Translations under genes and position numbers: made by a program | Part shown: positions 11,914 through 24,959 of the stretch, one piece after another | Layout: every line of letters begins with the position of its first letter | Numbering within the stretch: the stretch's first letter is position 1 | Notes under the pieces: generated by a model | Database searches by the model: none | Told to the model about the DNA's origin: nothing | The model's input: the letters and a program-made list of their open reading frames with translations, nothing else | Source: Yersinia massiliensis CCUG 53443 | GTDB taxonomy: Bacteria > Pseudomonadota > Gammaproteobacteria > Enterobacterales > Enterobacteriaceae | Direction: 5' to 3' | Assembly (NCBI RefSeq): GCF_000312485.1 | Contig: NZ_HE997651.1 | Location: forward strand, 1 to 64,000 | DNA length: 64,000 bases

Positions 11914-13764
11914 ATGCCAAAGTACCGTTCCCATACCACCACCCATGGCCGCAATATGGCTGGCGCCCGCGCACTGTGGCGCGCTACCGGTATGACCGAT
12001 GATGACTTCGGCAAACCGATTATTGCAGTGGTTAACTCATTTACCCAGTTTGTACCGGGCCACGTTCATTTGCGCGACTTAGGCAAACTGGTTGCAGAGC
12101 AAATTGAAGCTTCTGGTGGCGTGGCGAAAGAGTTCAACACCATAGCGGTGGATGATGGGATCGCAATGGGTCACGGCGGCATGCTCTACTCCCTGCCTTC
12201 GCGCGAATTGATCGCCGATTCCGTTGAGTACATGGTGAACGCCCACTGTGCGGATGCCATGGTGTGTATCTCTAACTGCGACAAAATCACCCCAGGGATG
12301 CTGATGGCATCTCTGCGACTGAATATCCCCGTGATCTTTGTGTCCGGCGGCCCAATGGAAGCCGGCAAAACCAAGCTGTCAGACAAAATCATTAAGTTGG
12401 ATCTGGTGGATGCCATGATTCAGGGGGCGAACCCTAATGTCAGTGATGCCGACAGCGAGCAAATCGAGCGCTCAGCCTGCCCAACCTGCGGCTCCTGCTC
12501 AGGGATGTTTACCGCGAACTCCATGAACTGCCTGAATGAAGCGCTGGGCTTAGCCTTACCGGGTAACGGTTCACTACTGGCAACCCATGCTGACCGTAAG
12601 CAACTGTTTCTAGATGCCGGTCAGCATATTGTTGCGCTGACCAAACGTTATTACGAGCAGGATGATGTCAGTGCCTTGCCGCGCAGCATCGCCAATAAAG
12701 CGGCATTCGAGAACGCCATGACGCTGGATATCGCGATGGGCGGCTCAACCAATACCGTGTTGCACTTACTGGCTGCGGCGCAGGAAGGTGACGTTGATTT
12801 CGACATTAGCGATATTGACCGCTTATCCCGTCAAGTCCCGCATTTGTGTAAAGTCGCGCCGAGTACGCAGAAATACCATATGGAAGACGTACACCGTGCG
12901 GGTGGGGTGATGGGGATTTTAGGCGAGCTTGATCGTGCTAACCTGCTGAATCGAGAAGTGAAAAACGTTTTAGGGCTGACGTTGACCCAAACGTTGGACA
13001 CCTATGATGTGATGCTGACCAAAGACGAAGGCGTGAAGCAGATGTACGCCGCAGGTCCTGCGGGTATCCGCACCACGAAAGCGTTCTCGCAAGATTGCCG
13101 TTTCCCATCACTAGACACTGATCGTGAAGACGGCTGTATTCGTACCCGCGAACATGCCTATAGCCAAGATGGTGGCTTAGCCGTGTTGTACGGCAATATC
13201 GCCGAAAACGGCAGTATCGTTAAAACCGCTGGCGTCGATAAAGAGAGTTTGATCTTCCGCGGCCCCGCTAAAGTGTACGAGAGCCAAGATGCGGCGGTAG
13301 AGGCGATTCTTGGTGGAAAAGTGGTGGCCGGTGATGTGGTCGTTATCCGCTACGAAGGGCCAAAAGGTGGGCCAGGGATGCAGGAAATGCTCTATCCAAC
13401 CACTTATCTGAAATCCATGGGATTAGGCAAAAGCTGCGCATTACTGACAGATGGCCGCTTCTCTGGTGGCACATCAGGGTTGTCTATCGGTCACGTGTCA
13501 CCAGAAGCAGCCAGTGGCGGCTTGATTGGTTTGGTGCAGGATGGTGACTTTATCAACATTGATATTCCTAGCCGTGGCATCGTATTGGATGTGAGTGAGT
13601 CTGAGCTGGCTGCTCGTCGTGAAACTGAAGAGGCCCGTGGCGCTGCTGCATGGTCACCGAAAGCCCGCGAACGTCAGGTTTCTTATGCACTGCGCGCTTA
13701 TGCCTTATTGGCGACCAGCGCGGACAAAGGTGCTGTGCGCGACAAAAGTAAGCTGGGAGGCTAA
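11914..13764 (+). CDS. ilvD: Dihydroxy-acid dehydratase IlvD
   Basis: This 616-residue iron-sulfur dehydratase converts dihydroxy-acids to the 2-keto acids of the Ile and Val pathways. Length equals E. coli IlvD. Cluster-ligand regions [11 protein letters not shown] (about residues 118-128) and [18 protein letters not shown] are intact, and [20 protein letters not shown], the C-terminal family signature, is present. It is separated from ilvE by 158 bases and from ilvA by 5. Confidence 0.97.
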
Positions 13765-13769
13765 TCCCC

Positions 13770-15314
13770 ATGGCGGTATCACAACCCTTATCCGCTGCCC
13801 CCTGTGGGGCAGAATATCTGCGTGCGATACTTCGTGCGCCGGTGTATGAGGTGGCGCAAGTCACCCCACTGCAAGCGATGGAAAAAATCTCGTCTCGCTT
13901 GGGTAATACCATTTTGGTGAAGCGGGAAGATAGGCAGCCGGTGCACAGCTTTAAGCTACGCGGAGCTTACGCGATGCTGGCGAGCCTGACTGAAGAGCAG
14001 AAAACGTGTGGCGTGATTACCGCTTCTGCGGGTAACCATGCACAAGGGGTGGCGCTCTCAGCCAGCAAGCTAGGCATCAAAGCGTTGATTGTGATGCCAG
14101 TGGCGACTGCCGACATCAAAGTGGATGCGGTGCGTAATTTTGGTGGTGAAGTGCTGTTGTTCGGTGCCAATTTTGATGAAGCCAAAGGCAAAGCTATCGC
14201 ACTATCCCAACAGCAGGGTTATACCTTTATTCCCCCTTTTGATCATCCAGCCGTGATTGCAGGACAGGGAACACTGGCCATGGAGTTGCTCCAGCAAGAT
14301 GCACATCTCGATCGGGTGTTTGTTCCGGTCGGCGGCGGTGGGCTGGTGGCAGGGGTCGCCGTGCTGATCAAACAGTTGATGCCGCAGATTAAAGTCATCG
14401 GAGTCGAAGCGGAAGATTCGGCCTGTTTACGCGCAGCGTTAGATGCAGGTAAACCGGTCGATCTGGCCCGTGTTGGGCTGTTTGCTGAAGGTGTGGCGGT
14501 GAAGCGTATCGGTGATGAACCTTTCCGTCTGTGTCAGGAATATCTGGACGAAGTGATCACGGTCGACAGTGATGCTATCTGTGCAGCGGTCAAAGATTTA
14601 TTTGAAGATGTGCGTGCTATCGCTGAACCCTCAGGTGCCTTGGCACTGGCGGGCCTGAAAAAATATGTGCAGCAGCACAATATTAAAGGCGAGCGCTTAG
14701 CCCATGTGCTTTCGGGCGCTAACGTTAACTTCCACGGTTTACGTTATGTGTCTGAGCGTTGTGAACTGGGCGAACAGCGCGAAGCACTGCTGGCTGTCAC
14801 TATTCCTGAGCAAAAAGGCAGCTTCCTACGTTTCTGCGAATTGCTAGGTGGTCGTTCAGTGACGGAGTTTAACTACCGTTATGCTGACGCGGATAATGCC
14901 TGTATTTTTGTTGGGGTGCGTTTGACGCGCGGTTATGCGGAGCGGGCAGAGATCCTCGCCGAGTTGCAGGAGAAAGGTTATCAGGTAGTGGATTTGTCTG
15001 ATGACGAAATGGCGAAACTCCATGTGCGTTATATGGTGGGGGGCCGTCCGTCAAAACCATTGCGTGAGCGTCTGTACAGTTTTGAATTCCCCGAGTCACC
15101 GGGCGCATTGCTGAAATTCCTGCATACCTTGGGCACGCATTGGAATATCTCGCTCTTCCATTATCGTAGCCATGGCACTGATTTTGGCCGTGTATTGGCA
15201 GGGTTTGAGTTGTCTTCATCTGAACCGCAATTTGAGCAACATCTTGCCGCGTTAGGCTATGACTGCCATGACGAAACAAATAACCCCGCATTTAAGTTTT
15301 TCTTAGCGGGTTAG
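13770..15314 (+). CDS. ilvA: Threonine deaminase IlvA
   Basis: This 514-residue PLP enzyme converts threonine to 2-ketobutyrate, the committing step of isoleucine synthesis. Length equals E. coli IlvA. The PLP lysine is K62 in HSFKLRGAYAM, and the phosphate loop VGGGGLVAG is present. Two C-terminal ACT-like domains (from about residue 335) provide isoleucine inhibition and valine activation. It begins 5 bases after ilvD with GGGAGG as ribosome site. Two stem-loops follow. Confidence 0.97.
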   Translation: MAVSQPLSAAPCGAEYLRAILRAPVYEVAQVTPLQAMEKISSRLGNTILVKREDRQPVHSFKLRGAYAMLASLTEEQKTCGVITASAGNHAQGVALSASKLGIKALIVMPVATADIKVDAVRNFGGEVLLFGANFDEAKGKAIALSQQQGYTFIPPFDHPAVIAGQGTLAMELLQQDAHLDRVFVPVGGGGLVAGVAVLIKQLMPQIKVIGVEAEDSACLRAALDAGKPVDLARVGLFAEGVAVKRIGDEPFRLCQEYLDEVITVDSDAICAAVKDLFEDVRAIAEPSGALALAGLKKYVQQHNIKGERLAHVLSGANVNFHGLRYVSERCELGEQREALLAVTIPEQKGSFLRFCELLGGRSVTEFNYRYADADNACIFVGVRLTRGYAERAEILAELQEKGYQVVDLSDDEMAKLHVRYMVGGRPSKPLRERLYSFEFPESPGALLKFLHTLGTHWNISLFHYRSHGTDFGRVLAGFELSSSEPQFEQHLAALGYDCHDETNNPAFKFFLAG

Positions 15315-15330
15315 CAGTTATATTGCAACG

Positions 15331-15360
15331 GGCCCTCATATCTAATGATCGATAGAGGGC
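15331..15360 (+). terminator. Weak stem-loop after ilvA
   Basis: The arms GCCCTC and GAGGGC enclose an 18-base loop directly after ilvA. No T-run follows at once, but the strong terminator at 15379 lies just beyond. Confidence 0.45.
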
Positions 15361-15378
15361 TTAAGTCATTTTTTCTAG

Positions 15379-15400
15379 CGGCTCATTGAGCCGTTTTTTT
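15379..15400 (+). terminator. ilvA terminator
   Basis: A perfect 7-bp stem (CGGCTCA / TGAGCCG, one-base loop as drawn) is followed by seven Ts. The 21 bases 15379-15399 recur exactly at 17534-17554, inside the 3' end of ilvY, so two copies bracket the AT-rich gene between them. Confidence 0.88.
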
Positions 15401-15704
15401 ATGCGTCTCATTCAAGTCATATAAATTTGTGAATCATTTAGATCATATTAATGACAGATAGAATATAAATTGAATATTCTCAGGTTAACTGTCATTAGTT
15501 TTTCTTGTTCGACATGTAATTTCGTTTACTTTCTTATTAATTATCATGTTGTCAGTTGGCTAGAGATAAAATCGTTAGCGTCTAAGTGTACACGACAATT
15601 TTTTGCCTGATACAAATAATTATCACTTTTACTTATTGTGACCTTAGATAAATAGAATCATAAAAATAAATTATTTTAATCTCATAAACAATATAGGTAT
15701 CTCT
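15401..15704. other. AT-rich region upstream of the unknown repeat gene
   Basis: These about 300 bases are strongly AT-rich, unlike the ilv genes before them, and contain no open frame I would call. They should hold the promoter of the gene at 15705. The AT content would suit H-NS binding. Confidence 0.45.
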
Positions 15705-17471
15705 ATGAACGATAAAAATTCTTACGACCATCATACTGTTAGACGCGACGGTATTAATTTGGAAAACCAGCCGATTAAAGAATACAAAGATAAACGTGGG
15801 AATGTGTTACGAGATAAATTTGATATTCACGGAAAATTGATTTGGCGTGAAAAACTGGCTTATAACAAGAACGATAAAACAACCTCAAAAGTTATTACAC
15901 AATTTACCCGTAATGATAAAGGCTCGATAATTAATCGTCATGATGAGATTTATAGTGCGTCTGGCGAGTTAATTGAATGCAAAGAGCTCGTTAGATCGGG
16001 GAGTGGTGAGTCTGCTATAACGAGAAGATCAGAGTGTCAATATAGTGATGGAAATGTAGTCCTTAAAACTGAAAAAACACTTGATTCTAGTGGTAGTATT
16101 TTGAATGAAACTAAGCAGTATTTTTATTTTCATCCAGATGGGAGTCTTACATACAGTCATTTGTCTTTATATAAGGATGGGATCTTAGATGGAGTAATTA
16201 GGGAAGAAAGCAAGGGGTGGGATGGTGATGAAGTAACTTATAGCGAGATTAGTCACCATAATGGCAAGGAAGAATTGATTTCCATTTGCAAAAGAGAATA
16301 TTCTAATAAGGGCGGAAGAGATGGGGATGTTAGTTATAAAGACAGAAGATATAATAATAGTGATGAGTTAGTTGAGATTGTAGAACTATCAAAATCATTT
16401 AATAAAGATGGGCTGTCATATAGTGTTAATGAGATGTTTTATTCTTCCGAACAAGATTTATATAATGAAAAAGAATCTAAGGTAATTGACAGCGAATTTG
16501 ACGCTTCAGGTAATTTAATTTTCAGCGATACAACTATTGATAATAAGAAAGTAACGATACATCAAGAATTTGATTCTTTCGGTGAGTTAAAGTCAAAAGA
16601 GGAAAAGACCCAACTCACTCGTGATGGGCTGACTTATCAGGAGAATATATATACTTACGATGCTAATGGCGTTGAAATAGATGTGGTTGAGATAACTCAC
16701 ACCTATGATTATTCTAGTCGTAAGTTACAGTCGTCATATGAGTTCCACCGGACTAATGACTCTAAAGGTCAGATGACGAGTTCAATTGAAATACGTAAAG
16801 AATATGACTCTAGTGGTAACTTAATATCTAGCATTGAAGATAAGAGTGACCCTGCTGGGGAGTTAGTTAGCGACTCTACAAAAGAGTCAATCTCTAGTTC
16901 TGAAAATAAAGTGACTGAACATACGACAGCAACGCAAAAATATAATGACCAAACAACCGGAAAGTTTACAAAAAAAGAAACATCTGATGTTGATGGGAAT
17001 TTTACTGAAAGAAATAAAGACATATATGACGAAAATGGAATACGAATTAAGAGTGTGACGATAAGTGAAAAAATCAATTCTGCTAGTAACAGAACTTACC
17101 TAGCTGAAGAGATTCAAGAGTTTGGCTATGATGGAAAATTAATCGTCAAAGTCGTTGATAATTATGAGTTCAAATTCGGTTCGGATGGAAAACTTCTCTC
17201 CCAAACGCAATTAACGCAAGAATTTAATTCAGATGGTGTTCTGACTTTCTGTTCTGGAGGCGAATATAAAGCTGATGGACATAAGACTAAAGACTTTAGT
17301 GGCACTAGTGGGCACGATGGGGAACATCGTCATCTAGAGCACCAGTATGAGACGTTAGACCATTTGATGAGTGCGATGAATAGCTTTGACCTCAATGAGG
17401 GCGTGCCTACATCGGTAGAGACTCATTTTATGTCCGCTATGAAGCCGAATACACTGGTGGCACCGGTATAA
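15705..17471 (+). CDS. Unrecognised repeat-rich hydrophilic protein
   Basis: I do not recognise this 588-residue protein. It is hydrophilic, rich in Lys, Asp, Glu, Ser and Asn, with no signal peptide or membrane segment and only three or four Cys. Residues 38-515 hold about fifteen degenerate copies of a short unit, F/Y-D/N/S-x-x-G-x-L/I (for example 38-46, 82-90, 264-272, 317-325, 366-374, 440-448, 490-498), spaced 10 to 50 residues apart. This resembles YD-repeat or MORN-like beta-hairpin arrays. A His-rich stretch (536-553) precedes a tail with two SAM-containing segments (554-560 and 576-580), ending NTLVAPV. The tail recalls C-termini of type I-secreted proteins, but this is only a guess. 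The DNA is visibly AT-rich with codon use unlike the neighbours, which suggests transfer. The ribosome site is weak. Confidence 0.75.
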   Translation: MNDKNSYDHHTVRRDGINLENQPIKEYKDKRGNVLRDKFDIHGKLIWREKLAYNKNDKTTSKVITQFTRNDKGSIINRHDEIYSASGELIECKELVRSGSGESAITRRSECQYSDGNVVLKTEKTLDSSGSILNETKQYFYFHPDGSLTYSHLSLYKDGILDGVIREESKGWDGDEVTYSEISHHNGKEELISICKREYSNKGGRDGDVSYKDRRYNNSDELVEIVELSKSFNKDGLSYSVNEMFYSSEQDLYNEKESKVIDSEFDASGNLIFSDTTIDNKKVTIHQEFDSFGELKSKEEKTQLTRDGLTYQENIYTYDANGVEIDVVEITHTYDYSSRKLQSSYEFHRTNDSKGQMTSSIEIRKEYDSSGNLISSIEDKSDPAGELVSDSTKESISSSENKVTEHTTATQKYNDQTTGKFTKKETSDVDGNFTERNKDIYDENGIRIKSVTISEKINSASNRTYLAEEIQEFGYDGKLIVKVVDNYEFKFGSDGKLLSQTQLTQEFNSDGVLTFCSGGEYKADGHKTKDFSGTSGHDGEHRHLEHQYETLDHLMSAMNSFDLNEGVPTSVETHFMSAMKPNTLVAPV

Positions 17472-17503
17472 GCAATCTTCAGTTCTACCGCGGCTGAGTT
17501 CAA

Positions 17504-18385
17504 TTACAGCAGCCCCCAAAACGCTTCTATCAACGGCTCATTGAGCCGTTTTTTCGTTACGCAAACACCCAACTCAAATGGCTCCACCAGTGAGACATCA
17601 TCCAGCAGCGAAATACGATTACGCACTGGTTCGGGGCTATTATCCACCACGACTGATGGGATTAATGCCACGCCGCAGCCCAATGCGACCATCGACACAA
17701 TCGCCTCATGACCAGAGACGGTTGCATAAATTAATGGGCTAGTGATGCGCTGGCGACGAAACCATAAATCGATACGTTTTCGTGAGGGACCATGCTCCGG
17801 CAATATAAACGGGATGTTAGCCCAATCAGGCTGATCGATGGATACCTGAGATCGCACCGCGCAAGGCAGGGCAGGTGCAATCAGCACTAACGGAATTTCG
17901 CCAATCTGGGTAAAGGCCACACTGCTGGGGAGAACTTCAGGGCGGCCTGCAATCCCAAGATCAGCCTCATTAGATTGCACCTTATCGACAGCATCGGCAG
18001 CATCGCCAGTTGTGAGCTTGATTTCAACCAGTGGGTGGCGAGCCCGAAAGCGATCGAGAATGGGCGGTAAGTGGCTGTAAGCTGCAGTGACCGAGCAAAA
18101 AAGCCGTAGCTCGCCACTCAATGATGGCCCATGTTGGCCCAAAGCATGGCGCAATTGCTGGTACTGGAGCAATGTCTGTTGTGCAAAAGCCTTTAATTGG
18201 GCACCTGCATCGGTCAGTTGCACGGTGCGATTGTCGCGCAAAAAAAGCGGCTGGCCGATGGTCTCTTCCAAGCGCTGGATCTGGCGCGAAAGGGTAGAGG
18301 GACTGACGTGCATGGCTTTAGCTGTGCGGCCAAAGTGGCGGCTTTCAGCTAAATGCAGGAACAATTTTAGGTCACGTAAATCCAT
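17504..18385 (-). CDS. ilvY: LysR-family activator of ilvC, IlvY
   Basis: This 293-residue LysR regulator (E. coli 297) activates ilvC when acetolactate or acetohydroxybutyrate is present. The helix-turn-helix HFGRTAKAMHVSPSTLSR and the conserved FCSVTAAYSHLPPILDRFRA match E. coli IlvY. The ATG at 18385 is chosen over a GTG one codon earlier because it reproduces MDLRDLK. It is divergent from ilvC around the operator at 18441. Its last codons (KRLNEPL) double, on the other strand, as a rho-independent terminator. Confidence 0.95.
   Translation of the reverse strand: MDLRDLKLFLHLAESRHFGRTAKAMHVSPSTLSRQIQRLEETIGQPLFLRDNRTVQLTDAGAQLKAFAQQTLLQYQQLRHALGQHGPSLSGELRLFCSVTAAYSHLPPILDRFRARHPLVEIKLTTGDAADAVDKVQSNEADLGIAGRPEVLPSSVAFTQIGEIPLVLIAPALPCAVRSQVSIDQPDWANIPFILPEHGPSRKRIDLWFRRQRITSPLIYATVSGHEAIVSMVALGCGVALIPSVVVDNSPEPVRNRISLLDDVSLVEPFELGVCVTKKRLNEPLIEAFWGLL
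17534..17554 (+). terminator. Plus-strand terminator embedded in ilvY coding end
   Basis: The stem CGGCTCA / TGAGCCG plus six Ts lies inside the ilvY reading frame, read on the opposite strand. It starts 63 bases after the stop of the unknown gene at 15705-17471 and would end that transcript. The 21 bases are identical to 15379-15399 after ilvA. Confidence 0.7.
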
Positions 18386-18440
18386 CACAGGCAGCCTCTT
18401 GGTTGAGAAGCACCATTGTATTGCATCAGGATTAAGCTGT

Positions 18441-18457
18441 ATTGCAGAATCTGCAAT
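18441..18457. promoter_or_regulatory. IlvY operator O1-like
   Basis: A perfect 8+1+8 inverted repeat (ATTGCAGA, A, TCTGCAAT) lies in the ilvY-ilvC divergent gap. Its form and place fit the E. coli IlvY operator overlapping the ilvY promoter. Confidence 0.75.
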
Positions 18458-18460
18458 ATG

Positions 18461-18490
18461 ACATTGTTAATATATCAATTTCAGCAATGT
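18461..18490. promoter_or_regulatory. IlvY operator O2-like
   Basis: The arms ACATTG and CAATGT are 18 bases apart with further partial dyad between them. The site is close to a TATAGT -10-like hexamer at 18502-18507 that probably serves ilvC. In E. coli a second IlvY site overlaps the ilvC -35 region. Confidence 0.45.
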
Positions 18491-18560
18491 GTTTCCTGTC
18501 ATATAGTGAATGCAAGGTTATCCCCTACACCCATAAAACAGAATTGAACGGAGTAATACC

Positions 18561-20039
18561 ATGGCTAACTATTTCAACACCTTGAACCTGCGTCAGCAGT
18601 TGGCGCAATTAGGTAAGTGTCGCTTTATGGCACGTGACGAATTCGCCGATGAAGCAAGCTACCTTAAAGGTAAAAAAGTGGTGATCGTGGGCTGTGGCGC
18701 ACAAGGCCTGAACCAAGGCTTGAACATGCGTGACTCCGGTCTGGACGTGGCTTACACCCTGCGCAAAGAAGCCATTGCTGAGAAGCGTGCTTCATGGCGT
18801 AAAGCGACGGAAAACGGCTTCAAAGTAGGTACCTACGAAGAGCTGATCCCACAGGCAGATTTGGTGGTTAACTTGACGCCAGACAAACAGCATTCAGCGG
18901 TTGTTCAAGCTGTTCAACCACTGATGAAAGATGGCGCAGCACTGGGTTACTCCCATGGTTTCAACATCGTTGAAGTGGGCGAGCAAGTGCGTAAAGACAT
19001 CACCGTCGTGATGGTTGCGCCAAAATGCCCAGGCACCGAAGTGCGCGAAGAATACAAACGTGGTTTTGGTGTTCCGACATTGATCGCGGTTCACCCAGAA
19101 AACGACCCTAAAGGCGAAGGCATGGCCATTGCTAAAGCTTGGGCTGCGGCAACGGGTGGTCACCGTGCCGGTGTACTGGAATCTTCATTTGTTGCTGAAG
19201 TGAAATCTGACTTGATGGGTGAGCAAACTATCCTGTGCGGTATGCTGCAAGCCGGTTCACTGCTGTGCTTCGACAAATTGGTTTCTGAAGGTACTGACGC
19301 GGCATACGCTGAAAAACTGATTCAATTCGGCTGGGAAACTATCACCGAAGCCTTGAAGCAAGGCGGTATCACACTGATGATGGATCGCTTATCCAATCCA
19401 GCAAAACTGCGTGCTTATGCGTTGTCTGAGCAGTTGAAAGAGATCATGGCGCCTCTGTTCCAAAAGCACATGGATGACATCATCTCAGGTGAATTCTCCA
19501 GCGGCATGATGGCTGACTGGGCGAACGATGATGCAAAATTACTGGGCTGGCGTGAAGAGACAGGCAGAACTGCCTTTGAGAATGCGCCACAGTTTGAAGG
19601 CAAAATTTCTGAGCAAGAATATTTCGACCACGGCGTGTTGATGATTGCGATGGTAAAAGCCGGTGTTGAATTGGCATTCGAAACCATGGTTGATTCTGGC
19701 ATTATCGAAGAATCTGCTTATTACGAATCCCTGCATGAATTACCGCTGATTGCGAATACCATTGCACGTAAGCGTCTGTATGAAATGAATGTGGTTATTT
19801 CAGATACCGCCGAATACGGTAATTACCTGTTCGCCAACGCAGCCGTGCCGTTACTGAAAGGTAAATTTATGGATTCCCTGCAAGCGGGCGATTTGGGTAA
19901 AAGCATCGCCGGTTCTGCGGTCGATAATGCCCAATTGCGTGATGTTAACGAGGCTATTCGCCAACATCCAATCGAATCTGTCGGTCATAAACTGCGTGGG
20001 TATATGACGGATATGAAACGTATTGCAGTTGCGGGCTAA
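18561..20039 (+). CDS. ilvC: Ketol-acid reductoisomerase IlvC
   Basis: This 492-residue class II KARI (E. coli 491) uses NADPH to convert acetolactate and acetohydroxybutyrate to dihydroxy-acids. The Rossmann motif [21 protein letters not shown] and the acidic metal site in [14 protein letters not shown] are clear. CGGAG lies 7 bases before the ATG. It is a single-gene unit under IlvY, ended by the terminator at 20097. Confidence 0.97.
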
Positions 20040-20166: not shown

Positions 20167-20934
20167 TTATTTTAAATGACTACTCAGGGGCTTACTGTTG
20201 CCTGAATCATCGATTAAGACAAAATCTAAAGCCGTACTGCTGCTCGTGGGTAAGTGATTGAGTGGGAAGTCGAGTGTAGAAAAAGGGGCGACCATATCAG
20301 GCAATGCTTCCGACGAACCTAATTTTATTGAGGCCAGAGACGCATAATAAGGTGTGGGGTTATTCACTTTAATCAGTGCAGTGTCACCGTTGCGCACTAA
20401 AGAAAAAGTTAATGCTTTGCCTAAGGTATCTTCCGGTGCGGGTATATCCTTTGGTCGATAAAAGATTTTGTACTGCATACGTAAGGCGAGGGTAACGAAA
20501 GATTCATCCTCAACTTTAGTGGTGGTCTTCGGCGGAATTTCGTAAACGTTAAGCCAAAATGCAGACTCTCTATCGACAGGTAATTTACTGGCCCCTGATA
20601 GAATTAACCGCAAACTGCGCTGTGCTTGCGGTTGTAACCGAAATAACGGTGGCAGCACTAATACTGGGGAAATCGCTTTCTCCGGTGTGGCCAGCAAATC
20701 ACCATCATCTACCCAGACCTGCACTGCGACTGGGTAGCTGTTGCTGTTGACCAGTTGCAGCGATTCTTCGGTGCTGCCTCCGCTAAAGATGACCCGTGTT
20801 CTTTCGGCTATCACGCTGGCCATCGCTGGCACACTGCTGGCCATCATCAGCAAAAGGAGCGAACAGTTGATTCCACGATTAACGCGTTGGATAAGCACGT
20901 TATTGGACTCGAATAACCACTTGCGCATGTGCAT
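20167..20934 (-). CDS. Fimbrial periplasmic chaperone (second)
   Basis: This 255-residue PapD-like chaperone should stabilise pilus subunits by donor-strand complementation. A long signal region (about residues 1-40, ending VPAMA) precedes SVIAERTRVIFSGGSTEESL. Family landmarks are the conserved Arg of ERTRVIF, LPPLFRLQPQAQRSLRL and the MQYKIFYRP strand. The ATG at 20934 has GGGAG 6 bases upstream; a second ATG lies at 20928. It overlaps the adhesin gene by 35 bases and is last in the operon. A dedicated second chaperone, distinct from the one at 24983, may serve the tip protein. Confidence 0.88.
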   Translation of the reverse strand: MHMRKWLFESNNVLIQRVNRGINCSLLLLMMASSVPAMASVIAERTRVIFSGGSTEESLQLVNSNSYPVAVQVWVDDGDLLATPEKAISPVLVLPPLFRLQPQAQRSLRLILSGASKLPVDRESAFWLNVYEIPPKTTTKVEDESFVTLALRMQYKIFYRPKDIPAPEDTLGKALTFSLVRNGDTALIKVNNPTPYYASLASIKLGSSEALPDMVAPFSTLDFPLNHLPTSSSTALDFVLIDDSGNSKPLSSHLK

Positions 20935-22267
20935 TCACCGCTCCCGCTGTCACCGTTTGCCCGCTGATCTTGCTTAACTCAGCCCGAAAGTTCTCCGTGT
21001 AGCTATTCCCCCCCGACACCGTGCCAGTTATCTGTTGTGCACCTTGGAAAATGCCATACCAGCCACCATTATTACCTGTTTGAGTCACATTCTTTGATAA
21101 CAGATACATCGGACTATTATTACGGTAAATACGGATGCCAACTCCGCTTGCCATTCCCGCAGCACCGTAATTTTCAGAAACTAAATGGCTGATACCACCA
21201 CTGCCATTCATTAATCCTAACGTTTGTGCTTTTGCAACACTGGCCGCGGGCACCAAAAAACCCATTGCCACTGTACCCGCGGTGACACCTGAATTAATGC
21301 CTGTTTGACACTGAAAATCCACATTAAAATCCGCAGAGCTGGTATTACCATTGTTTAACTCGGCGACAGAAATCCTGGGTAAAATAACTGTCGGCGTAAA
21401 GTTAGTGACCGCACATATTGTTGTGCGGCGAAAAGTCATATAATTGTATAGCCCGATGGAAGCAGGCCAAGTCCCATACCAACCAGGCCAATTTGATACT
21501 GAGTCGGTGCCTTCAACTGGGCCACTTATCCCTGGGCCTTTAAAAGCAATATAGGCATTTGGCTGGGTATAGGCATAGGCATATGAAGCCACATTATAAG
21601 CCCCTGCGCGGGTATAGTTTATGCGAAAAAGCTCAGTATAAAGATTACTGAAATTCTTCGCTTTGACTAAGATACGGCCAGTACTGTCCGTATCAAGTCC
21701 CGTTAAACGGCGTCCTTTCCACAAGCGAGAGTAATATTCACCGGTTGAAAGATTTGTCAGTCGAATCACGACATTGGCGACAACGGTGGCAAAACCATAG
21801 GGAACATTACCCGCGATGGCACCATCTTCATTTTTGCCACCATAGTCATTATCTCCGTTAGTGGCATACATTTCGAATAGTTGGTCGACATCTGCCGCCG
21901 CACAACGAAAGAGTACGCGTTCAGGGTCATAACCCGTATTTAAGGCGAAAGTGGTGAAATCAGAAGTTGCAGCCGCTAATAGCGTACCATCTGGTTGAAA
22001 ATTGGCATTGGTACTGAGATCGATGACACTCGGTAAGCCAAGTGAGCCATTATTATTGTCCAGTGAACCTGCCCATGCTCCCGCCGTGCCATCGCCAGCG
22101 CTAAGCTGGTTTTGCGCTGTAATTTTGGTGCAGGCTGACCATACAGGTGTGCTGCATAGCCCTAGCAGTGCCATCATTCCCGCTATCATGCAGGCGCGAC
22201 GATAACGCGTTGCGACCGCTGATGGCGGAACTTCGCAAGATAGTAATGGTACTTTTTGTCTAAACAT
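20900..22267 (-). CDS. Fimbrial tip adhesin-like protein
   Basis: This 455-residue protein has an N-terminal signal peptide ending near PVWSA (about residue 44) and is more than twice pilin length. That suggests a receptor-binding domain (about 45-285) joined to a pilin domain (about 290-455). The pilin part holds VILPRISVAELNN, DFQCQTGI and a C-terminal beta strand ending HAQVVIRVQ. The N-terminal half is not recognisable to me, so the ligand is unknown. It lies 16 bases after the usher and overlaps the second chaperone. Confidence 0.82.
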   Translation of the reverse strand: MFRQKVPLLSCEVPPSAVATRYRRACMIAGMMALLGLCSTPVWSACTKITAQNQLSAGDGTAGAWAGSLDNNNGSLGLPSVIDLSTNANFQPDGTLLAAATSDFTTFALNTGYDPERVLFRCAAADVDQLFEMYATNGDNDYGGKNEDGAIAGNVPYGFATVVANVVIRLTNLSTGEYYSRLWKGRRLTGLDTDSTGRILVKAKNFSNLYTELFRINYTRAGAYNVASYAYAYTQPNAYIAFKGPGISGPVEGTDSVSNWPGWYGTWPASIGLYNYMTFRRTTICAVTNFTPTVILPRISVAELNNGNTSSADFNVDFQCQTGINSGVTAGTVAMGFLVPAASVAKAQTLGLMNGSGGISHLVSENYGAAGMASGVGIRIYRNNSPMYLLSKNVTQTGNNGGWYGIFQGAQQITGTVSGGNSYTENFRAELSKISGQTVTAGAVNAHAQVVIRVQ

Positions 22268-22283
22268 TATTTCTCTCGCATCG

Positions 22284-24959
22284 TTAACGGCGGCAACTGC
22301 CGATTAAATGGATAATATCTTGCTCGGCTTCTTTTGAATCAAACGCATAAGGTAATTCGCATTGTTCATTGCTGTTATCGCCCCAGCGAACATAGAGTGA
22401 TCCTTTTTTATCCTTCACCCTTGCGTAGATCTGATTGCCTTGACCCACCATACCAACAAGCTCGTCTTTTCCGCTGTAGACATCTGCACCGAGTGGTAAC
22501 CCCTCACCTTCAGCCGCTTGGGTTTGGATCAATACAGCGTAGCCGGTTAAGGTTTCAAATTTCACTTTAACTGCTGCGCCAGAATAAGGAACCACGCGCC
22601 CCTGATTCTCTTTCAGTTCCGTATTACGATTAATCCCTTTCGTATCTAAACCAATCGTATTGTAATTGTAGGGTGTGAGTGATGGCACCAGCGCAAAACC
22701 GTTACTATCAATCCTCGCCCCTTGCGAATTACGCACGGTCGCACCTTGGGCACCATCGGCTTCAATTAAGCCAAAAGTCTCACCCAAATAAGGCCCCAAT
22801 GTCAGGCCTTGGCTATGAATAACCGCCGCACCACGTGCACCCGCCCCATATTGGGTATAATTACTGCCACGAGAATAGCTACCATTGACTGTCGCATTAG
22901 GGAACTGCTGCTGCACATTCGCCCCCCAAGTATTCGAACTGCCACTTATATTGCTGTCGTCGTAACCCGCATTGACGGAATAGTTAAAGCTATTTCGTTC
23001 ACCGGCAGTACCTGATAGTGACGTCTGATAGTTATTACCACTTTTTGGATTACGGTTGGCAGACAGGGATAAATACTGATTCCTGTTACCTATATTCAAT
23101 GGAATCGACACTGTCAACGACGCGATATTTTCGGTATTGCCATAACGCGTTGATGTCGTTGTGGCATCAGTCTCATCGGTATCCCAGTTATAGAGCGTTG
23201 AAGTATAAATCGTACGTTGGCGACTAATGGCCACGTTATAACTGATGTCGCGATAACTGTTTGAGTAATTAAGCTGTAACTGCGTGTCCCGCTGAGTATC
23301 GTTATAATAATCGCTGGTTGATGCTGATGCCGACAGTTGCCCATAGCCGCCCAGTGACTGATTTATGGTCGTCGTAAACTGGCTGCGTTGCTTATAAGTG
23401 GATGAATCCCAGTTTCCGCCATTCTTTTCTACTGAGCGCACACCGAAAACATCATTTAAGTCGCGATAGCCTTTTGTTGAATAACGATATCCAGCCAATG
23501 AGAAGGAAGTCCCCGTTTCATTAAATGTTTGGCTATAGGTAGCCTGCATTCGCCAGCCATCCTGAGTTTGATCATTTTCAACTTTAGCGTGGGAATAAGT
23601 GGTATTGAGACCAAATGCACCAACGGGGGTCCCTAATACCCCCCCAACAAGTAGTGCCGTATAATCTTGTGCTAAACGAATCCCACTGTTGGCCGTTAAT
23701 TGATTCGTTAGACCGCGTTCGTAGGTGAAGTCCGAGAAATAGCTATCGATATCGGTGAAATCACGTGATTCCCCAACAACGGCATTATAACGGCTCACAC
23801 CTGGGCGCATTGAATCGGGTACGGCACTAAACGGCACGGTAAATGTGGAGCGAGTGCCATTTGCCTCTATTACCTCAACATTGAGGTCACCTTGGCTAGC
23901 AGTGCTATATAAGTCGTTAATAACAAATGGGCCGGGTGCGACGTTGGTTTCATATATTTCCTGCCCATTCTGGCGAATAACCACTCGCGCATTACTCGTG
24001 GCAACACCACGGACTTCTGGCGCAAAGCCACGCATGGACTCTGGCCACATACGTTGGTCAGTCGCCATTTTAGCGCCACGAAATGACATGGTGCCGAATA
24101 ATGTACTATCGGTAAATGTTTCGCCCAGCGTTAATTGACTATCGAGTTGTGAAATAGGGCGTTGCACATAAGTCCGGATATTATTCCATTGTGTATCGCT
24201 GTTCGTTGAATTACTGGCATAGCGCACGTTTGATTGTTGACGAATTTGCCACAGCCCTAAGTTCAAGCCACCTTTAAGACCCAGAAACCCGTAATCAGAA
24301 GTATTATTTTGTGTGCCCTGTGTTTCGCTGCGATAAAAGTTAGTGCTGTAGTTAACAAATGCGAGGTTCTCCCCTTCGTCCCATTCCGAGCGCTCAATAT
24401 AGCCTCGAGGCTGCTTTTTTAATAAAGCTTGTGGAATAGAGAGTTCTAAGCGCAGCTTGGCTTGATCAAAGTGGAATGAGGCCCCTTTTACCCGTTGAGA
24501 CAGCGGGATACATTCGCCTGTTGAGGTTTCTGCCGTGGAATTTGAAGGTGCTGGCTCCGGATTGGTCGCATCAGCCACATGAGGTTCTTTCTCCATGGCA
24601 CTGTCACTACCGATAACTTTAATACCTGCAGCCGTTAAGAACTCATCGCTCAGACAGGGGTGAACCTCTGATGAATCAGTATCCTTAACAAACTTAATTG
24701 TCGTACGTTTATACTGTTTATTATTGATCAAGACATCGACAGCATCGTAATTACCCGCTGTTGTGGCATTCTCTTTGTTAAGTTGACTCAGCCCCGCGGC
24801 AAAATTTGTGCCTAAAAAGAGAGACTCGTCAAACTCTAGATTCTGTGATGCTTCCTGAGCTAAAACAGTATCAACATGCAAGATTAAGCTGATACATAAC
24901 GTTAATGCTTTCTTACGACCAGAAAATTTCGTCTTGAATATGCTGCGTGCAAAACCCAT
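22284..24959 (-). CDS. Outer-membrane fimbrial usher
   Basis: This 891-residue PapC/FimD-family usher forms the outer-membrane pore and assembly platform. It has a signal peptide ending TVLAQ, an N-terminal domain beginning LEFDESLFLGTNFAAGLSQ, the usher segment SQLTLGETFTDSTLFGTMSFRGA-type region and a plug/barrel region. The C-terminal domain includes a two-Cys pattern (EQCELPY and IGSCRR). The frame is complete, with length usual for the family. It starts 23 bases after the first chaperone. Confidence 0.95.
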   Translation of the reverse strand: MGFARSIFKTKFSGRKKALTLCISLILHVDTVLAQEASQNLEFDESLFLGTNFAAGLSQLNKENATTAGNYDAVDVLINNKQYKRTTIKFVKDTDSSEVHPCLSDEFLTAAGIKVIGSDSAMEKEPHVADATNPEPAPSNSTAETSTGECIPLSQRVKGASFHFDQAKLRLELSIPQALLKKQPRGYIERSEWDEGENLAFVNYSTNFYRSETQGTQNNTSDYGFLGLKGGLNLGLWQIRQQSNVRYASNSTNSDTQWNNIRTYVQRPISQLDSQLTLGETFTDSTLFGTMSFRGAKMATDQRMWPESMRGFAPEVRGVATSNARVVIRQNGQEIYETNVAPGPFVINDLYSTASQGDLNVEVIEANGTRSTFTVPFSAVPDSMRPGVSRYNAVVGESRDFTDIDSYFSDFTYERGLTNQLTANSGIRLAQDYTALLVGGVLGTPVGAFGLNTTYSHAKVENDQTQDGWRMQATYSQTFNETGTSFSLAGYRYSTKGYRDLNDVFGVRSVEKNGGNWDSSTYKQRSQFTTTINQSLGGYGQLSASASTSDYYNDTQRDTQLQLNYSNSYRDISYNVAISRQRTIYTSTLYNWDTDETDATTTSTRYGNTENIASLTVSIPLNIGNRNQYLSLSANRNPKSGNNYQTSLSGTAGERNSFNYSVNAGYDDSNISGSSNTWGANVQQQFPNATVNGSYSRGSNYTQYGAGARGAAVIHSQGLTLGPYLGETFGLIEADGAQGATVRNSQGARIDSNGFALVPSLTPYNYNTIGLDTKGINRNTELKENQGRVVPYSGAAVKVKFETLTGYAVLIQTQAAEGEGLPLGADVYSGKDELVGMVGQGNQIYARVKDKKGSLYVRWGDNSNEQCELPYAFDSKEAEQDIIHLIGSCRR

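What the first reader, a model, noticed from the sequence alone, without database searches (positions are those of the whole stretch)
15705..17471. Unrecognised AT-rich gene for a repeat-array protein between ilvA and ilvY
The 588-residue product has about fifteen copies of an F/Y-D-x-x-G-x-L/I unit (residues 38-515), no signal peptide, and a His-rich segment before a short tail. Its base composition and codon use differ visibly from the flanking ilv genes. ilvA and ilvY are neighbours in E. coli, so this is an inserted accessory gene. The unit recalls YD or MORN-type beta-hairpin repeats, which in other proteins form shells, toxins or surface structures. No partner gene lies beside it, so it may act alone or with secretion machinery elsewhere.
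Basis: partly seen in the sequence, partly recalled or inferred. Interest (0 to 1): 0.75.

Follow-up and report, generated by a model that had tools for sequence, protein, structure and literature searches.

The report
Yersinia-only beta-ribbon gene beside ilvY
Between two ordinary amino-acid genes, many Yersinia species carry a fast-changing, undescribed gene whose protein is predicted to be a long ribbon of beta-strands with a shared tail, possibly an export label; what it does is not known.

Summary
The gene is real: window 15705-17471, 588 aa, 36% GC against 49-54% in the ilv genes, with no convincing match in Pfam, NCBIfam, PHROGs or PADLOC. It is not a stray insertion. Genes with the same tail sit at this ilvA-ilvY junction in 15 of 25 Yersinia genomes (11 as one intact frame); no convincing match was found elsewhere in the genus or in sampled genomes outside it. 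Presence follows the species tree, so the gene looks like an old resident with several losses. Its protein changes about a hundred times faster than IlvA (thirty times faster than IlvY), yet is constrained. AlphaFold models of this protein and of a 211-aa relative share one plan: low-confidence start, a run of beta-strands (35 and 8) with short turns, a short helix, a loose end. In three relatives a second tail-bearing gene precedes it, with ilvY 3'-end copies between, so the array probably grew by tandem duplication; the window keeps a 21-bp trace. Best guess: a secreted or surface beta ribbon exported through its C-terminal helix by type I secretion. Family and locus pattern are well supported; fold is predicted; export and role are inference, and the one direct test of the tail was weak.

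The parts
15705..17471 (+). Gene for the 588-aa repeat protein
   Evidence: constrained against the 69% identical relative, dN 0.181, dS 0.400
15774..17306 (+). Predicted run of 35 beta-strands with short turns, residues 24-534 (one short helix at 249-254); read as a meander
   Evidence: AlphaFold model: ten-residue pLDDT means 84-95 for 271-390 and 80-93 for 421-530; below 80 before residue 271
17313..17363 (+). His-rich stretch, residues 537-553
   Evidence: sequence
17337..17381 (+). Predicted C-terminal helix, residues 545-559
   Evidence: local pLDDT only 35-37; a helix is predicted at the matching place, residues 164-173, in the 211-aa relative, local pLDDT 46-50
17358..17468 (+). Shared tail, residues 552-588; Leu554 and Phe561 invariant in the 15 tails aligned
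   Evidence: convincing matches only at this junction
15475..15704 (+). Upstream region with blocks recognisably shared with relatives
   Evidence: alignment of 16 upstream regions, read by eye; promoter scan not above chance, 11 against 9.9
15377..15400 (.). Terminator-like hairpin after ilvA holding the first copy of a 21-bp direct repeat (15379-15399); possible remnant of an ilvY 3'-end copy
   Evidence: terminator scan itself not above chance, 2 against 2.2
17532..17555 (.). Second copy of the 21-bp repeat (17534-17554), inside the ilvY 3' coding end

Best explanation
The gene belongs to an undescribed family of beta-ribbon proteins, so far seen only in Yersinia, that lives at one chromosomal slot between ilvA and ilvY. 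Each intact member seen has a short start, a body of repeated strand-turn-strand units whose number varies strongly, and a shared tail with a short helix (fold modelled for two members only). The gene most simply entered the slot once, early in the genus, and was inherited vertically; in one lineage it was duplicated in tandem together with the end of ilvY, and it was lost several times (inferred from the tree and the ilvY 3'-end copies). The protein has no Sec-type signal. The C-terminal helix is most likely an uncleaved export signal read by a type I secretion system, which would place a flexible beta ribbon on the surface or in the medium; there the body would face something that drives fast change (a competitor, host molecule, phage or predator). 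Shown: gene, locus, distribution, evolutionary rate. Predicted: fold. Inferred: export route and role.
For: Tail profile: 19 matches in 15 of 25 Yersinia genomes, 18 of them at this junction and one weak match with an internal stop elsewhere. In 394 sampled Enterobacterales genomes, 3 of them Yersinia, only those 3 and one hit with two stops. In named ilvY loci: 8 of 12 Yersinia, 0 of 68 others. Presence needs 4 changes on the ilvA+ilvY tree, shuffled mean 8.0, 0 of 500 as low. Own against G024: dN 0.181, dS 0.400, last 60 codons dN 0.058; ilvA dN 0.0017, ilvY 0.006. Models of two members share the plan. No hydrophobic signal. C-termini of four RTX-repeat proteins (recognised by eye) in three other genomes carry a similar L-x-x-A-M-x-x-F segment near the end. 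The only one of the four with an exporter directly downstream has one closest to a two-ABC plus adaptor cluster of the window's genome: ABC 46-47% identity, 589/550 bits against 204 and 240 for the Has and Lap-like transporters; adaptor 281 bits against 124 and 146. [quoted passage not shown]
Against: Profile comparison of the tail with the four RTX C-termini is weak: probability 5.2%, 15 columns, 2 of 200 column-shuffled controls as good. Those four were found with a motif chosen for its likeness, so part of the likeness is circular; three of the four had no exporter in the 9-10 kb downstream. Type I adaptors occur in 25 of 25 genomes, also in the ten without the gene, so co-occurrence tests nothing. 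No exporter lies at the locus. The helix has low model confidence, and its helical moment is unremarkable (windows starting at 545-549 rank 37-208 of 575). In pairs of relatives the tail is often hardly better conserved than the body (0.42 against 0.39, 0.48 against 0.44) and in the small-gene pairs less so (0.46 against 0.60, 0.46 against 0.55, 0.29 against 0.52).
Confidence: 0.4

Rival explanations
1. The protein is exported by a type III (flagellar or virulence-type) system through its flexible N-terminal segment; the C-terminal helix serves folding or chaperone binding.
For: The first 21 and 38 residues have pLDDT under 50 in the two models, taken as disorder; in some members the start is Ser/Ile-rich and well kept (head 0.95 identical against body 0.73 in G021-G008). 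Likeness to type III signals is recalled, not tested.
Against: The own protein's start (MNDKNSYDHH...) is not of that kind; the head varies in other pairs (0.30 in G012-G010). The tail is the segment by which all 15 genomes were linked.
Confidence: 0.15
2. A polymorphic-toxin-like or bacteriocin-like competition gene that varies because of arms races, with the beta run as a Rhs/YD-like shell.
For: Foldseek's best PDB matches are Rhs/YD proteins and teneurin (E 2.4e-13); fast evolution; the small companion gene has a hydrophobic C-terminus (by eye).
Against: The C-terminus is shared, not a swapped toxin domain; the next gene is ilvY on the other strand, so no immunity gene follows; no Rhs, toxin or defence profile; TM-scores about 0.1, so only local hairpin geometry matches.
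Confidence: 0.15
3. A cytoplasmic or weakly selected protein: a resident gene that drifts, with a body under little constraint and no dedicated export.
For: Often lost or broken: 8 of 25 junctions are 16-132 bp, and in 4 of the 15 tail-bearing genomes the gene is split, short or a remnant.
Against: dN is below dS over the body in 8 of 8 pairs and for the whole gene against G024, though many pairs are near saturation; the upstream region and tail persist; the frame is intact in 11 genomes.
Confidence: 0.25

Closest known systems
Rhs/YD-repeat proteins (e.g. PDB 8qjb, TcC, teneurin)
   Same: Repeated strand-turn-strand units with aromatic-D-x-x-G turns; best local Foldseek matches in PDB
   Different: No RHS_repeat or Rhs-core profile match at cut-off, no C-terminal toxin found; TM about 0.1
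MORN / MORN_2 repeat proteins
   Same: Hairpin repeats; BFVD's best hit is a MORN protein, E 6.3e-13; weak MORN_2 hits in the Y. aleksiciae relative (E 0.0039) and in G024 (E 0.29)
   Different: Below Pfam's cut-off (17.7 and 11.9 against 29.6 bits); no MORN match for the own protein at E<=1
OspA single-layer beta-sheet
   Different: About 8-14% identity, no lipoprotein signal; outer-membrane barrels score similar Z, so the match is not specific
C-terminal ends of RTX-repeat type I substrates
   Same: L-x-x-A-M-x-x-F segment that starts 35 residues before the C-terminus in the four seen; in the own protein Leu554 also starts 35 residues before the end, in other members the distance varies
   Different: No RTX repeats recognised here; profile likeness weak

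Membership tests
YD/RHS repeat family (PF05593, Rhs core) | Profile match at the curated cut-off | tested here: not met
   Own protein: 0 Pfam families at E<=1; best relative RHS_repeat E 0.055, 14.4 of 22 bits
YD/RHS repeat family (PF05593, Rhs core) | Closed beta shell around a C-terminal toxin | tested here: inconclusive
   Model pTM 0.50, global shape unreliable; no toxin profile in Pfam or NCBIfam
MORN / MORN_2 | Profile match at the curated cut-off | tested here: not met
Type I secretion substrate | No N-terminal Sec signal | tested here: met
   No hydrophobic stretch, best 19-residue mean 0.41; no signal-peptide program was run
Type I secretion substrate | C-terminal, uncleaved signal (helix near the end) | tested here: inconclusive
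   Helix predicted in both models at low confidence; weak profile likeness to RTX C-termini
Type I secretion substrate | ABC transporter and adaptor in the genome | tested here: met
   TIGR01843 over cut-off in 25 of 25 genomes; two-ABC plus adaptor cluster in G000. Not specific to this protein
Type I secretion substrate | Demonstrated export | not testable with these tools
   needs an experiment
Polymorphic toxin (CDI/Rhs type) | Variable C-terminal toxin domain with adjacent immunity gene | tested here: not met
   C-terminus is the shared part; next gene is ilvY on the other strand; no PADLOC match at E<=0.1

The most novel reading that the evidence does not exclude
A genus-specific, length-variable beta-ribbon family that occupies one fixed slot, grows by tandem duplication with the end of the neighbouring gene, and is sent out by a type I exporter without a known cargo, as a surface or released variable ribbon.
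Probability: 0.25. Interest if true: 0.68.

Novelty: new variant of a known kind. Interest (0 to 1): 0.5.

Why it matters
It points to an undescribed gene family in a well-studied genus, at a place usually read as plain biosynthesis genes. If export is confirmed, the genus would have a variable surface or released protein with a known address and an exporter to test. It also suggests how an array can grow by duplicating a gene together with the 3' end of its neighbour while that neighbour stays intact.

Tried and rejected
Recent horizontal insertion: rejected, since presence follows the species tree and the relatives measured share the composition. Phage or plasmid cargo: no match in phages or plasmids or viral contigs. 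A first scan of genome contigs with the protein found no relative; records near the window's own genome may be left out there. Body profile outside the genus: only the window's genome among 369 gammaproteobacterial genomes; the window's genome and the tail part of one Yersinia relative (G016) among 394 Enterobacterales. The same search missed G019, which does carry a tail-bearing gene, so this profile does not reach all members, and absence outside the genus is only as good as that. These are even samples, not all genomes, and at most 16 candidates per genome were scored. RNA element: no Rfam match in 13500-18700 at gathering score. Serratia also fills this junction (726-2434 bp in 18 loci), with unrelated genes by eye. 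NCBIfam scan of the 15 tails gave only six single weak hits, best E 0.087. Solved-structure sequence search gave two 'Fiber' chains at E 0.036-0.037. Literature: 'Yersinia'+'ilvA'+'ilvY' 0 papers; three looser searches (listings read only) and a motif search with 0 papers showed nothing on this locus. Most subscription papers are not in that library.

VIA-align listed OspA, LptD and other barrels with similar Z, so it does not single out a relative. The second structure job went to a 211-aa relative, so the small companion gene's fold is untested. Of the 15 places found I read six.

Full report
Observation. The open frame 15705-17471 encodes 588 aa. GC is 36.2% and GC3 30.7%, against 52.5/52.2% in ilvA and 52.9/53.2% in ilvY. 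The F/Y-D-x-x-G-x-L/I unit is above chance: strict form 4 copies (shuffle mean 0.04, maximum 1 in 2000 shuffles), relaxed form 8 (mean 0.45, maximum 4), broad form 13 without control. There is no match in Pfam at E<=1 or PADLOC at E<=0.1, one chance-level PHROGs hit at E 0.082, and two NCBIfam hits far below cut-off, E 0.022 and 0.11.

Distribution. ilvY was found in 25 of 25 genomes of the genus. The window's own species was not determined. A full-length search with the protein reached only 5 of 25 genomes. A profile of 15 C-terminal tails gave 19 matches in 15 of 25. Eighteen lie at the ilvA-ilvY junction (coordinates compared); one weak match with a stop, E 0.045, lies elsewhere. By reading the junctions, 11 of the 15 have one intact frame ending in the tail, 2 (G005, G016) are split, 1 (G022) is a 76-aa short form and 1 (G017) a remnant. 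Eight genomes have a junction of 16-132 bp. Two (G006, G011) hold other genes. Outside the genus the tail was not found in 394 sampled Enterobacterales genomes (3 of them Yersinia) except for one hit with two stops, E 0.0086, nor in 68 named non-Yersinia ilvY loci, 63 of which show ilvA beside ilvY. The body profile found nothing outside the genus in 369 and 394 sampled genomes, but it also missed one true member, G019.

History. On a tree of ilvA+ilvY (24 genomes; G002 left out because its contig ends before ilvA), tail presence needs 4 changes, against a shuffled mean of 8.0 and 0 of 500 shuffles as low. The window's genome and the four others reached by the full-length search form one clade with 100/100 support; some deeper forks are open. 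This speaks for an early gain with later losses, and against recent transfer. In G015, G005 and G020 a second, smaller tail-bearing gene lies between ilvA and the main gene. Between the two are copies of the ilvY 3' end: 50 bp at 92% in G015, 79 bp at 68% in G005, pieces of 23 and 21 bp at 90-91% in G020; in G015 further unrelated genes lie there too. The window and G024 keep a 21-bp exact copy after ilvA (15379-15399 in the window; second copy 17534-17554 inside ilvY). The eight short junctions have one copy (6) or none (2) by the pattern used. The simplest reading is tandem duplication of a unit made of the gene and the ilvY end, then loss of the first gene in the window's lineage (inference). 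A 21-bp hairpin alone could also be a convergent terminator; the longer copy in G015 argues against that.

Selection. Own against G024: 69% aa identity, dN 0.181, dS 0.400; last 60 codons dN 0.058, dS 0.379. For the same pair ilvA has dN 0.0017 and dS 0.184, ilvY 0.006 and 0.199. So the protein changes about a hundred times faster than IlvA and thirty times faster than IlvY, at about twice their synonymous rate, and is still constrained. In 8 pairs body dN is below body dS every time, but many values are near saturation; one 20-codon head (G007-G021) has dN above dS and another (G000-G015) has no usable dS. Tail and body are often about equally conserved, and in the small-gene pairs the tail is less conserved. 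About 200 nt upstream of the start share blocks across types, by eye.

Export. No hydrophobic signal is present. A motif search in 394 genomes gave 15 places in 14 genomes; I read six, and four of these, in three genomes, are C-termini of proteins with RTX-like repeats, recognised by eye. Their ends look like the tail, but the profile comparison is weak: 5.2% probability, 2 of 200 shuffles as good. I looked downstream of all four: one has an ABC transporter and adaptor, closest to a two-ABC plus adaptor cluster of the window's genome. Around that cluster I noticed no obvious cargo gene in the 20-kb list of open frames (by eye, not searched). Type I adaptors are in 25 of 25 genomes, so presence does not discriminate. 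Type I export is therefore my leading guess at about 0.4, not a result.

Verdict. A real, undescribed protein family at a fixed variable slot, so far seen only in Yersinia. The fold type is of a known kind; the combination of slot, duplication with the ilvY end, ribbon of variable length and shared tail was not found described in the searches made.

Noticed in passing
L053:11791-14214 (Y. proxima) and G011 junction (Y. ruckeri, L031): The same ilvA-ilvY slot holds an M60/enhancin-like peptidase gene (Pfam PF13402, E 5e-54, for Y. proxima; the Y. ruckeri one judged by sequence likeness only).
   Followed up: partly
L009 11059-14000 (G015): The junction of G015 also holds two near-identical genes and a small gene pair that look like Rpn-type nuclease/transposase and a MazEF/PemK-like toxin-antitoxin pair (labels recalled, not searched).
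   Followed up: no
L162 7700-13354 (G000:C1, about 1096700-1102354): A type I exporter cluster with two ABC transporters around one adaptor; no obvious cargo gene seen in the 20-kb list of open frames.
   Followed up: partly
window 20167-24959; compare L009 4394-6533, L010 14087-16945, L011 13000-16238: The other side of ilvC is variable too: a chaperone-usher fimbrial cluster in the window, but a large bacteriocin-like gene with an HNH-type end in G015, G005 and G020 (names by recognition).
   Followed up: no
Serratia loci L062-L082, ilvA-ilvY junction: A similar 233-237 aa gene (DUF2461-like, recalled) shows among the top three frames of 16 of 18 Serratia junctions read, some with further genes of another kind.
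   Followed up: partly
L028 (G006) junction: Two tandem similar frames of 160-161 aa and a 303-aa frame on the strand opposite to ilvA, with no tail match.
   Followed up: no
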